Shown here: positions 18,900 through 24,833 of the stretch, piece after piece
How the letters are laid out: every line of letters starts with the position of its first letter
How positions within the stretch are numbered: the stretch's first letter is position 1
Source: Clostridiaceae bacterium
GTDB lineage: Bacteria; Bacillota; Clostridia; Oscillospirales; Acutalibacteraceae
Direction: 5' to 3'
Assembly (NCBI GenBank): GCA_016288315.1
Contig: JAEEYU010000065.1
Span: 1 to 49,331, forward strand
Length of the DNA stretch: 49,331 nucleotides
The notes under the pieces: generated by a model
Told to the model about the DNA's origin: nothing
What the model saw: only the letters and a program-made list of their open reading frames with translations
The model's database searches: none
Translations under genes and position numbers: made by a program

Positions 18900-19760
18900 T
18901 TGAGCAAAAAACGAAAAATCGTGAGCTTGGCCGTTTTCGGCGGTATCATAATCGCACTGATTGTCGGAATTGTCGCGACGGCTCCGCCCGCAGGGGCGAA
19001 GGAGCCGATAAACGAGGTTATGAAGGATGCCGTTTTGCACGAAACGGGCAGAATAAATCTGTTCGGTGCGGTTCAGGTCAACCCGGCGCTTGTTTCGGCA
19101 TACATTGTTACCGCCATACTGATTGTTTTTGCCGTTATTGTGCGGATATTCTTTATTCCGAGATTCACGCCGATACCGGGAAAGTTCCAGTATCTGCTTG
19201 AAAAGGGAGTCGGGCTTTTCACGGGGCTTGCAAAGGAGAACAGCCCGCACAAAACGCAGTTCATCGGCGGATACATATTCACGGCAGGCGCATACATCTT
19301 TTTCGGCACGCTGTTTGAGCTCTTCGGATTTCAGGCGGTGACCGTCTCGGGGCATTCGATTGCCCTGCCCGCTCCGCTCGCCGACATAAACGGAGCGATA
19401 GCGATGGGATTTTTCTCCTACGGCGTCATACTTTTCGGCGGACTTGTCAACAACGGAATCAAGGGGATGCTTCACGCGCTCAAGGATTTCACGCTCCCCG
19501 TTTCAATGAGCTTCCGTCTGTTCGGCGCTCTGCTTTCGGGCGCGCTTGTAACCGAGCTTGTTTATTACTACACACTCACAAGCTATGTTCTGCCCGTAAT
19601 TGTGGGCGTTATGTTCACGCTTTTGCACGCGCTTATTCAGGCATACGTTCTGACGATGCTTGTTTCAATATTCTACGGTGAATCCTCCGAAAAGAAGGAG
19701 AAAAGCGAAAAAGCCGTAAAAACCAAAATCAAAAAAGAGAAAAGAAGGAAAGTATCATGA
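18900..19760 (+). CDS. atpB: F-type ATP synthase subunit a
   Basis: 286 residues from a TTG start with GGAAGGAGG at ideal distance. Subunit a forms the ion half-channels beside the c ring in the membrane. A signal-like first helix is followed by the usual helices; SMSFRLFGALLSGAL holds the essential Arg206, and LHALIQAYVLTMLVSIFY is the last helix. The protein ends in an unusually long, strongly basic tail (Lys-rich, about 25 residues). First gene of the operon; atpE overlaps its stop by ATGA. Confidence 0.92.
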   Translation: MSKKRKIVSLAVFGGIIIALIVGIVATAPPAGAKEPINEVMKDAVLHETGRINLFGAVQVNPALVSAYIVTAILIVFAVIVRIFFIPRFTPIPGKFQYLLEKGVGLFTGLAKENSPHKTQFIGGYIFTAGAYIFFGTLFELFGFQAVTVSGHSIALPAPLADINGAIAMGFFSYGVILFGGLVNNGIKGMLHALKDFTLPVSMSFRLFGALLSGALVTELVYYYTLTSYVLPVIVGVMFTLLHALIQAYVLTMLVSIFYGESSEKKEKSEKAVKTKIKKEKRRKVS

Positions 19761-20143
19761 ATAAAACAATAAAAATCATTATGGCAGTTCTCGGCATTAT
19801 GTTTATTCTCGGCGCAGTTATGCTCCCCGCATTTGCGGCTGATGAAACGCTCATTGCCCCCGCTCCCGCCGCAGCCACGGAAGAGGCGCAGGAGCAGGAA
19901 ACCTCCGCAGACGCAAATGTCAAAAGCACAAAGGCGATTGCCGCAGCTGTTGTTCTTGCGACTACCGCAGTGGCAGGCGCAATTGCGATGGGCATAGCAA
20001 TCAAGAGTTCGTCAGACGGTATTGCACGCCAGCCCGAGGCGGCAGGCAACATCCGTAGCGGTATGATGCTCGGCCTTGTGTTTATTGAGACTGTTGTTAT
20101 CTACGCGCTTATTGTTGCGATTCTTATTATTTTCGTTCTTTGA
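19757..20143 (+). CDS. atpE: F-type ATP synthase subunit c with N-terminal signal-like extension
   Basis: 128 residues, where subunit c is usually 70-90. The C-terminal 75 residues are a normal c hairpin: first helix, polar loop ARQPE (residues 90-94), second helix with the ion-carrying Glu111 in FIETVVIY. In front is a typical signal peptide (residues 1-27, cleavage likely after AFA) and an Ala/Glu-rich stretch of about 27 residues. The position of Gln32 of sodium-type c rings (Ilyobacter) is Met here, although Thr and Tyr follow Glu111 as in sodium rings, so proton use is somewhat more likely. Start is fixed by the ATGA overlap with atpB. Confidence 0.9.
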   Translation: MNKTIKIIMAVLGIMFILGAVMLPAFAADETLIAPAPAAATEEAQEQETSADANVKSTKAIAAAVVLATTAVAGAIAMGIAIKSSSDGIARQPEAAGNIRSGMMLGLVFIETVVIYALIVAILIIFVL

Positions 20144-20646: not shown

Positions 20647-22362
20647 ATGGATATTAACCCGAAATGCGCCTACCTCTATGCCGACACTCCGCCGGATGAG
20701 GCACAGCTTGAGGCGCTGTTGAAACTCCTTAAAAAAAGGCACAATATTGAAGAACTCGAATTTGTTCACGACGACAGCATAAAGGGCGGTTTCAGGATGA
20801 CCGCCGGCGACCGTCTCTACGACTGGACGAACGAAGGCAGACTTAAACAGTTCAACCGCGCTGTGGATAAAGCGGTAGGCGGCAGCAACGTTCTGCCGCT
20901 GCTTAAAGACACAATTAACGGTTTCACGCCCGGCACGCTCGGGGAGGAAATCGGAACGGTGCTGACAGTCGGCGACGGCATAGCCATTGTAAAGGGGCTT
21001 GAGAGCGCGGAATACGGCGAGATTCTTATGTTTGAAGGCGGCTCGCGCGGACTTATTCAGGACCTTCGCGAGAACGAAATCGGCTGTATTCTTTTTGACG
21101 ACGGCGACGACGTGCTTCAGGGCGACCTTGTTTTAAGAACAGGTATGGTCGCAGGTATGCCGGTAGGCGAGGATTACATAGGCAGGGTTATTGACGCTCT
21201 CGGCAACCCCGTTGACGGTCAGGGCGACATAATCCCCGACGACACCTATCCCATTGAAAAGCATGCGCCCGGAATAATCGAGAGGCAGCCCGTCAGCGTT
21301 CCGCTTGAGACGGGCATTCTTGCAATAGATTCGATGTTCCCCATAGGAAGAGGTCAGCGAGAGCTGATTATCGGCGACAGGCAGACGGGCAAAACCGCCA
21401 TAGCAGTTGACACAATAATCAACCAGAAGGGCAAGAACGTAATCTGCATTTACGTTGCGATAGGGCAGAAGTCGAGCTCTGTTGCGGCTCTTGTGAACAC
21501 GCTGAACAAATATGACGCCATGGATTACACGATTGTTGTAAATTCATCGGCGAGCGATGCCGCGCCCCTGCAGTATATAGCGCCCTATGCGGGCTGCGCC
21601 CTTGCGGAATATTTTATGGACAAGGGCAGAGACGTGCTGATTGTTTATGACGATTTGTCAAAGCACGCCGTCGCCTACAGAACGCTGAGCCTGCTTCTCA
21701 GCAGAGCGCCCGGCAGAGAGGCATATCCCGGCGATATCTTCTACCTGCACTCACGCCTGCTTGAACGCTCGGCAAACCTGAGCGACACAAAGGGCGGCAG
21801 CATAACAGCACTGCCGATTGTCGAAACCCAGGCGGGCGACATTTCGGCGTATATTCCCACAAACGTAATTTCAATCACCGACGGCCAGATATTCCTGGAA
21901 GCGGATTTGTTCAACAGCGGGCAGCGCCCCGCGATAAACGTCGGCGAGTCCGTCTCACGAGTGGGCGGCGACGCGCAGACGGAAGTTGTCAAAAAGGCGT
22001 GCAAGAGTCTTAAACTCGAGCTGTCGCAATACCGTGAAAAGCTTGTTTTCACGCAGTTTTCGGGCGACCTCGACGCAGAGACGGTCAAAACGCTGAAGTT
22101 CGGCGGAGGGCTTATGCGCCTGCTGAGGCAAAAGCAATACAGTCCCGTTTCACGCCACCGTCTGGTAACAATCTTCGCGGCGGCTCTTGCAAAAAAATTC
22201 ATTGACCTGCCCGAGAGCGGAATCGAGGCGGCTGCGTCGGGTCTTTGCGATGCGGTTGAAAACGAGCTGCCGGCAATCTGCAAAAAGATTGAAACAAAGG
22301 GCACTCTCAGCGCGGCAGATGCAAAGACGCTGACGGACTATATCGGTAACTACGAGATTTGA
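20647..22362 (+). CDS. atpA: Fusion of delta C-terminal domain with ATP synthase alpha subunit
   Basis: 571 residues, about 70 more than usual for alpha. Residues 1 to about 76 match the C-terminal domain of subunit delta/[24 protein letters not shown], then [18 protein letters not shown] followed by RLKQF, against the delta pattern [20 protein letters not shown]...QLERL. From about residue 82 the sequence is ordinary alpha: an N-terminal helix, [14 protein letters not shown], Walker A GDRQTGKT (243-250), [12 protein letters not shown]-type region, and [20 protein letters not shown]. The delta N-terminal six-helix domain, which normally docks on alpha, is missing from the operon. The fusion would tie the b-binding domain covalently to alpha. 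The frame is continuous, so this is not a sequencing join. Confidence 0.93.
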
Positions 22363-22363
22363 T

Positions 22364-24833
<2,470 letters not shown>

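What the first reader, a model, noticed from the sequence alone, without database searches (positions are those of the whole stretch)
20647..22362. Delta C-terminal domain fused to ATP synthase alpha; delta N-terminal domain missing
Between atpF and the alpha frame there are only 5 bp, and no atpH exists in the operon. The first ~76 residues of the alpha protein match the C-terminal domain of delta/OSCP, including the [18 protein letters not shown] block, and the normal alpha N terminus follows. In known enzymes one delta sits on three alphas through its N-terminal domain and holds the b dimer through its C-terminal domain. Here every alpha would carry a b-binding domain, so three copies per enzyme would meet one b dimer. 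That implies either asymmetric use of one copy or a different peripheral stalk. b-delta fusions are known in mycobacteria; I know of no described delta-alpha fusion.
Basis: partly seen in the sequence, partly recalled or inferred. Interest (0 to 1): 0.87.

Follow-up and report, generated by a model that had tools for sequence, protein, structure and literature searches.

The report
ATP synthase alpha fused to delta
In this bacterium the ATP synthase has lost half of the small subunit that normally allows only one outer stalk, and the stalk-binding half is built into the alpha subunit, present three times per enzyme, so the enzyme could carry up to three stalks; the same design was engineered in a laboratory in 2025 and predicted for a few other bacteria.

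Summary
The alpha ORF (20647-22362) starts with the C-terminal, b-binding domain of delta/OSCP (residues 8-73), then a linker, then a normal alpha. No delta N-terminal domain was found in the 77.7%-complete genome, nor above cut-off in 10 congeners (at least 90% complete) with a fused frame of this type. The claim that no such fusion is described does not hold: Ueno et al. 2025 engineered this delta(dN)-alpha fusion (PDB 9jc1, up to three peripheral stalks, H+/ATP 5.8) and reported natural cases in Acidaminococcus fermentans and two UniProt entries. The window is a new member of a published kind. Beyond the paper I found alpha-size fused frames in 26 of 66 CTD-positive genomes (147 searched) of its order, fusions that do not form one clade, standalone delta-CTD genes, tandem CTDs and, also in the window's genus, b'-deltaCTD-alpha triple fusions beginning with a transmembrane helix. 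Triple fusions tie a stalk strand to every alpha, which favours several stalks over one used and two idle domains. Best reading: a three-fold symmetric F1 docking one to three b2/a stalks, with a raised ion/ATP ratio. Stalk number is untested here.

The parts
20668..20865 (+). delta/OSCP C-terminal (b-binding) domain, residues 8-73 of the fused alpha
   Evidence: Pfam OSCP positions 111-171; family profile 68 bits; beta-alpha-beta-beta-beta-alpha in the model, block pLDDT 66-82 over residues 1-70 and 55 over 71-80; dN/dS 0.09-0.17
20866..20943 (+). linker and residual alpha N-terminal helix (predicted helix at residues 83-91)
   Evidence: pLDDT under 50 at residues 79-97, helix 83-91; fast-evolving, dN 0.15-0.38 among window, L032, L033
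20944..22362 (+). ordinary F1 alpha body (beta barrel, nucleotide-binding domain, C-terminal domain) with stop codon
   Evidence: TIGR00962 669 bits; PF02874, PF00006, PF00306
20159..20641 (+). b subunit (atpF), 160 aa, one TM helix; the only b gene of the operon
   Evidence: PF00430 62 bits; hydrophobic stretch at residues 10-28
18900..19760 (+). a subunit (atpB); exact start uncertain (first start codon in frame is TTG)
   Evidence: PF00119 59 bits
19757..20143 (+). c subunit (atpE), 128 aa, with an N-terminal extension that looks like a signal peptide (by eye)
   Evidence: PF00137 47 bits at residues 61-124; extension read
22364..23200 (+). gamma subunit (atpG)
   Evidence: PF00231 224 bits
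23197..24591 (+). beta subunit (atpD)
   Evidence: TIGR01039 756 bits
24588..24833 (+). epsilon subunit (atpC), 81 aa, without the C-terminal helical domain
   Evidence: PF02823 42 bits; 4 residues after the beta-sandwich model

Best explanation
It is an F-type ATP synthase/ATPase whose delta subunit has been reduced to its b-binding C-terminal domain and made part of alpha. SHOWN: the only alpha gene found encodes one delta CTD at its start; no delta N-terminal domain is encoded in the operon or was found in the genome; the domain is under purifying selection and recurs in many relatives. INFERRED: F1 (three alpha-CTD, three beta) then offers three equivalent docks for a b2 dimer, and nothing on the three-fold axis limits it to one. 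The complex assembles with one to three b2 stalks, each bringing its own a subunit, as the engineered enzyme does. Each added a subunit passes another ion per c subunit per turn, so ions per ATP rise in proportion. ATP can then be made, or a small gradient maintained, at an ion-motive force too low for a one-stalk enzyme, which would suit an anaerobic fermenter.
For: Same architecture as PDB 9jc1: colinear sequence match through the junction; Foldseek ranks 9jc1 chains I and K first and second, 568 columns for 571 residues, TM 0.80 and 0.79. That construct bound b2 canonically, formed up to three stalks, had a 2.2x and b 1.8x, and H+/ATP 5.8. Repeated evolution: forcing all 54 fused rows into one clade is rejected (AU p 1.3e-63; group named after seeing the tree); fusions also lie in a lineage with standalone CTD genes and in family f53 among unfused enzymes. 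A delta-NTD profile hits 43 of 43 unfused operons (built from 30 unfused deltas of the order, so about half of these are independent), 4 of 5 type F, and 0 of 56 rows of types A-E. In the likely sister clade, and in the window's own genus, alpha is fused to deltaCTD and to a b-like segment (13 loci read; N-terminal TM helix in 10 of 10 scanned) next to a separate b gene, so every alpha there brings a stalk strand. The alpha N-terminal helix, which normally also holds delta-NTD, is less conserved in fused alphas at matched core identity (0.23 vs 0.40; 0.34 vs 0.42; 0.42 vs 0.50; 0.48 vs 0.66; pairs not independent).
Against: Stalk and a-subunit number cannot be read from sequence. The operon keeps one a and one b gene with no visible device for making more of them. 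By the paper, molecules with three stalks were rare on cryo-EM grids. One occupied and two idle CTDs would need the same genes. The N-helix result is also expected if only one stalk binds. The b-like part of type C is weak: Pfam's b model passes its cut-off in 1 of 3 proteins scanned. Pfam OSCP is not fully sensitive to divergent domains (G336's CTD scores 13.1 bits), so a very divergent NTD elsewhere is not excluded. Clade I (A+B+C+F) has SH-aLRT of only 80.
Confidence: 0.6

Rival explanations
1. Single-stalk enzyme with asymmetric use: one of three CTDs binds the b2 dimer, the other two stay empty. Fusion keeps delta's function in a smaller protein set, and the NTD was lost because three copies cannot fit on the axis.
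For: One a and one b gene as in ordinary operons. Near-full delta-alpha fusions (type F: L069, L070, L071, L122) lie in the same clade as type A, so NTD loss after fusion may be a steric consequence.
Against: The engineered homologue does take up further stalks. Triple b'-deltaCTD-alpha fusions leave no way to have only one stalk strand unless two b' helices idle in the membrane. Standalone CTD genes exist, so losing NTD does not require fusion.
Confidence: 0.3
2. Mixed alpha population: internal translation start or proteolysis makes unfused alpha from the same gene, so one fused and two plain alphas form the usual one-stalk enzyme.
For: Of 59 fused genes scanned, 29 have some in-frame ATG/GTG with an upstream SD of 4+ bases between CTD residue 20 and the start of the alpha barrel; the window is one of them.
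Against: In the window that site is a GTG inside the first barrel strand (EEIGTV), which would delete alpha's N terminus and whose SD-like bases encode a conserved protein motif; its linker GTG has no SD and is absent in L032 and L033; L066, L069, L080 and L132 have no start codon at all in the region. In 51 of 59 genes some start upstream of the CTD has an SD of 4+ bases. Proteolysis was not tested.
Confidence: 0.07
3. Artefact: assembly error or a true atpH elsewhere in the missing 22% of the genome.
For: The held genome is 77.7% complete in 74 contigs.
Against: L032 and L033 share the frame; of 12 congeners at least 90% complete with a CTD match, 10 have one frame of type A length and no full delta; the domain is under purifying selection.
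Confidence: 0.02

Closest known systems
Engineered Bacillus PS3 delta(dN)-alpha FoF1 (Ueno et al. 2025, PMC12229609; PDB 9jc1)
   Same: delta N-terminal domain removed, delta C-terminal domain fused through a short linker to alpha's N terminus, epsilon C-terminal domain absent; best sequence and fold match
   Different: designed, not natural; 47-48% identical in the fold alignment; stalk number, H+/ATP and structure are measured there and unknown here
Natural delta(dN)-alpha fusions named by Ueno et al. (Acidaminococcus fermentans, UniProt G4Q3K6, A0A1I2C5T3)
   Same: same domain order and missing NTD, as the paper states
   Different: their sequences were not seen here. Unnamed family f53 (L115, L116), with a Na+-type c motif, may be their kin (inference only) and is a lineage apart from the window in the tree
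Mycobacterial b-delta fusion (NF009961, PRK13428)
   Same: a delta domain fused to another stator subunit
   Different: fused to b, with full delta, one copy per enzyme (recalled); the nearest thing here is L041, b-deltaCTD
N-type ATPases
   Same: F-type relatives described as lacking a delta subunit (PMC5706428, passage)
   Different: longer b subunit like the archaeal E subunit (same passage) and a c ring of 17 (PMC12229609); the window's alpha scores 581 bits to the alternate-F1F0 alpha model against a cut-off of 750.5

Membership tests
F-type ATP synthase (F1Fo) | operon with a, c, b, alpha, gamma, beta, epsilon | tested here: met
   all seven found by Pfam in order
F-type ATP synthase (F1Fo) | complete two-domain delta/OSCP | tested here: not met
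   only profile positions 111-171 present, fused to alpha; no second OSCP match in the 77.7%-complete genome at E<=10
delta(dN)-alpha fused FoF1 (Ueno et al. 2025) | delta CTD joined N-terminally to alpha | tested here: met
delta(dN)-alpha fused FoF1 (Ueno et al. 2025) | no delta N-terminal domain | tested here: met
   own genome; NTD profile 0 of 38 type A loci; none over cut-off in the type A congeners; sensitivity to a very divergent NTD is limited
delta(dN)-alpha fused FoF1 (Ueno et al. 2025) | more than one peripheral stalk and a subunit per enzyme | not testable with these tools
   needs native mass spectrometry or cryo-EM
delta(dN)-alpha fused FoF1 (Ueno et al. 2025) | raised ion/ATP ratio | not testable with these tools
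   needs proteoliposome thermodynamics
N-type ATPase | alpha belongs to the TIGR03324 (alternate F1F0 alpha) model | tested here: not met
   580.9 bits, cut-off 750.5; ordinary atpA TIGR00962 669 bits over its cut-off 484. That TIGR03324 stands for N-ATPase alpha is recalled

The most novel reading that the evidence does not exclude
Multi-stalk ATP synthases are not a laboratory curiosity but have evolved several times and are common in an order of anaerobic Clostridia. The window's enzyme is one of them, and its likely sister clade, present in the same genus, has gone further: a b'-deltaCTD-alpha triple fusion makes alpha itself a membrane-anchored stalk protein, so three peripheral stalks (three b/b' pairs and up to three a subunits) are built in by gene structure, giving some of the highest ion-to-ATP ratios in nature.
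Probability: 0.42. Interest if true: 0.92.

Novelty: new member of a known kind. Interest (0 to 1): 0.68.

Why it matters
The one-stalk rule of ATP synthase, and with it the fixed ion/ATP ratio c/3, was broken by design in 2025, and the authors suggested that nature may do the same. This window and its relatives make that testable. They give many natural fusions in separate lineages, intermediates (near-full delta-alpha, standalone CTD) that let the steps be ordered, a triple fusion that should force three stalks, and genomes carrying both a full-delta and a fused enzyme (for example G178, G091, G315). If confirmed, textbook stoichiometry and energy budgets for these anaerobes would have to be revised.

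Tried and rejected
Chance match: rejected. Second atpH or a second rotary ATPase in the held genome: not found. Internal start giving plain alpha: no conserved signal in the window's group. One origin for all fusions: rejected by AU test, though the group was named after seeing the tree and the base tree was the quick kind; an early fusion split again in some lines is not excluded. Unanchored N-helix comparison was off by one residue in some rows and was redone anchored on the conserved glycine. Identifying family f53 as Acidaminococcaceae was not possible by name. The type C model is poor (pLDDT 65.4, pTM 0.51) and its Foldseek TM scores are low (0.37 to 9jc1_I, its first hit); only its domain order was used. 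Literature: the listings showed one paper on delta-alpha fusion or multi-stalk FoF1 (PMC12229609), on gamma-beta fusion, listed none. Not all hits were listed (20 of 33, 10 of 13, 15 of 20). I opened three papers: PMC12229609 (abstract, sections 7 and 13, passages), PMC5706428 (passages) and PMC5709465 (passages; it treats b-delta fusions). No paper on b-delta-alpha or gamma-beta fusions turned up; subscription journals and preprints are mostly not held.

Rows chosen or dropped: alignment A1 holds 44 of the 87 CTD segments, 3 of them from full deltas, so it leans towards reduced domains; yet each full-length delta that Pfam listed for handles up to G146 is also among the matches. A2 holds 35 of 40 type A proteins, A3 12 of 13 type C (L040 is cut). 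For the 106-row tree I left out 18 loci as near copies, cut copies or the window's own duplicate (L001, L003-L005, L015, L018, L022, L027, L028, L030, L040, L056, L061, L117, L119, L126, L128, L129), the 28 short loci L087-L114, and L021 (68 aa). Of the 26 fused genomes, G028, G041 and G144 were classed by frame length alone. Of 10 pairs, CTD dS could not be computed for 5; the other 5 gave 0.056-0.230.

Full report
The alpha frame runs 20647-22362 and starts 5 bp after the b gene; the operon is a, c, b, alpha, gamma, beta, epsilon with no atpH. Pfam OSCP matches residues 14-72 at profile positions 111-171 of 172 (E=2.9e-5 whole protein, 1e-6 for residues 1-80), and the atpA model takes over at residue 81. 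A profile made from relatives gives 68 bits. The missing part is the delta N-terminal domain. The held genome, 77.7% complete, has one OSCP match (E<=10), one alpha and one beta.

Incomplete data are an unlikely explanation. In the window's genus, 27 of 45 genomes matched my CTD profile at E<=0.01 (one of them, G335, weakly and in a frame with three stops). Of the 15 genomes at least 90% complete and at most 5% contaminated, 12 matched: 10 with a frame of type A length (573-604 aa) and 2 with a longer one (738 aa), each with a single match; three (G298, G307, G321) had none and were not looked into. A Pfam OSCP search of the same 45 genomes at E<=10 found full delta only in G302, G303 and G315. 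The best stretch resembling an NTD alone was below cut-off (G311, 15.1 bits, E=0.025, 156-aa frame; G311 is a type C genome) and was not followed up. Pfam's sensitivity is limited: G336's CTD scored only 13.1 bits. The nearest relatives, L032 (Ruminococcaceae RUG13231) and L033 (Clostridia RGIG2708, goat omasum), carry a 571-aa protein of the same layout. Between window-L032, window-L033 and L032-L033 the CTD has dN/dS of 0.157, 0.171 and 0.086, the alpha core 0.062, 0.062 and 0.079, and the linker 0.27, 0.43 and 0.38. The domain is kept by selection, less strictly than the core.

The kind is already in print. Ueno et al. 2025 (PMC12229609; abstract, sections 7 and 13 and found passages seen) reasoned that delta's N-terminal domain, lying on the three-fold axis, limits the enzyme to one stalk. 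They deleted it, fused delta's C-terminal domain to alpha, and obtained up to three b2 stalks with a subunits, about two on average, and H+/ATP of 5.8 against 3.0; molecules with three stalks were rare on grids, which they put down to sample preparation. They named A. fermentans and two UniProt entries as natural cases. The window's best PDB sequence match is that construct, 9jc1_I, colinear through the junction. Its AlphaFold2 model (mean pLDDT 74.7; residues 1-77 beta-alpha-beta-beta-beta-alpha; residues 79-97 under 50) matches 9jc1 chains I and K first, over 568 columns, while the chains of other entries in the top 50 align over 467-508.

What the relatives add. I read operons in 51 loci of the order (L034-L084, 50 genomes), picked from the CTD-only and odd matches listed and so not a random sample, plus L032, L033 and 20 more loci (L115-L134). 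Types: A deltaCTD-alpha (window and most); B two tandem CTDs and alpha (L039, 675 aa); C b'-deltaCTD-alpha (736-759 aa where complete) next to a separate b of 138-141 aa (L038, L040, L044, L046, L047, L048, L050, L053, L054, L067, and L127-L129 in the window's genus); D a standalone CTD gene of 72-74 aa (L035, L036, L051, L056, L060, L061, L064, L068); E b-deltaCTD (L041); F near-full delta-alpha (L069, L070, L071, L122; L118 is shorter and has no NTD hit); G delta with an extra CTD (L034); H a shortened delta (L042). Pfam agrees with the domain order in L039, L036, L041 and L069. In type C it finds OSCP and alpha in all three proteins scanned, but the b model passes its cut-off only in L044 (32.5 bits) and falls short in L127 and L054 (23.8 each; cut-off 28). 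An N-terminal hydrophobic helix is present in 10 of 10 type C proteins scanned.

Census. In 147 genomes of the order, 66 matched the CTD profile at E<=1e-4. Of these, 26 have an alpha-size fused frame (521-781 aa; types A, B, C and F together; one cut by a contig end), 4 a standalone CTD, 2 odd forms (261 and 161 aa), and 34 only delta-size frames; G091 has both a fused and a full one. The other 81 had no match and were not examined for other ATPases. Across 398 genomes of the phylum, 328 matched at E<=1e-3; the frames shown are mostly of delta size, and the list was cut short. Fused frames beyond the order were read in the same class (L122 of G730, L123 of G559) and elsewhere in the phylum in f53 (G359, G403, G505; L119 of G530 is cut) and f71 (L118 of G419).

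Evolution. A careful alpha tree of 83 rows puts type C on one branch (100/100), next to a clade of A, B and F rows, and a second clade of D with three A and one E. With phylum rows added (106 rows, quick tree), the f53 fusions fall among unfused enzymes, and clade I as a whole has modest support (80). Forcing all 54 fused rows into one clade is rejected (AU p 1.3e-63; group chosen after seeing the tree). The simplest reading is at least three fusions by two routes: delta joined alpha and then lost its NTD (type F rows in the A clade), or NTD was lost first (type D) and the CTD then joined alpha or b. An old fusion split again in some lines is not excluded. An NTD profile, built from 30 unfused deltas of the order, hits 43 of 43 unfused operons in the tree (23 of them loci from outside that set), 4 of 5 type F, the one type G, and none of 38 A, 1 B, 10 C, 6 D, 1 E and 1 H.

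How it probably works. The alpha gene carries a b-binding domain, and the part that breaks the symmetry is gone; three docks per enzyme follow. That up to three b2/a stalks are used is inferred from the engineered enzyme and from type C, where a stalk strand is covalently part of each alpha. The alpha N-terminal helix, which also holds delta-NTD in ordinary enzymes, is less conserved in type A than in unfused alphas at equal core identity (means 0.23 vs 0.40, 0.34 vs 0.42, 0.42 vs 0.50, 0.48 vs 0.66), as expected once NTD is gone; this does not separate one from three stalks. Internal starts that could make plain alpha are not conserved. The window's epsilon lacks its C-terminal domain, as in the engineered construct, but most type A relatives keep theirs (6 of 36 type A epsilons short), so this is not a fixed part of the design.

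What stays open is the number of stalks in a native enzyme. I put the multi-stalk reading at 0.6 and a one-stalk, two-idle reading at 0.3.

Noticed in passing
L041:2385-4709, L082:2688-5048, L084:8943-11303, L052:1039-2976: gamma and beta share one open frame: gamma has no stop codon of its own, and an SD-like stretch plus a start codon (ATG, GTG or TTG) precedes beta inside the frame (by eye). One gamma-beta fusion plus free beta per enzyme would covalently link rotor and stator. Seen in 4 of the 74 loci read (L082 and L084 are two species of one genus; L052 is frame-shifted further on and doubtful); Pfam run on L084 only; no paper listed.
   Followed up: partly
19757-20143 and most type A loci of the window's clade: The c subunit has an N-terminal extension that looks by eye like a cleavable signal peptide (window ...LPAFA/ADE) followed by an acid- and alanine-rich linker: ORFs of 111-157 aa in 31 of 38 type A loci and in type B (125), against 70-91 in types C-H; unfused loci have up to 100 apart from one ORF of 148 with two c matches (L138). 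ORF lengths run from the first possible start.
   Followed up: partly
24588-24833; type C loci: epsilon lacks its C-terminal helical domain in the window's subclade (window, L032, L033, L132-L134) and in the 10 type C loci measured (tails of 3-21 residues), but not in the other 30 type A loci measured (57-71).
   Followed up: partly
type C loci, separate b gene: The separate b of type C is about 20 residues shorter (136-139 from model start) than b in the other types (152-168, apart from the b-deltaCTD fusion L041).
   Followed up: no
L034:6899-7654: A delta with its own NTD and CTD followed by a second CTD (251 aa), unfused to alpha; one such protein might hold two b dimers.
   Followed up: no
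L115, L116 c subunits: The c subunits of f53 carry a Na+-type pattern (Q in helix 1, ES...Y in helix 2; motif recalled), whereas the window's c has M at the Q position and ET...Y.
   Followed up: no
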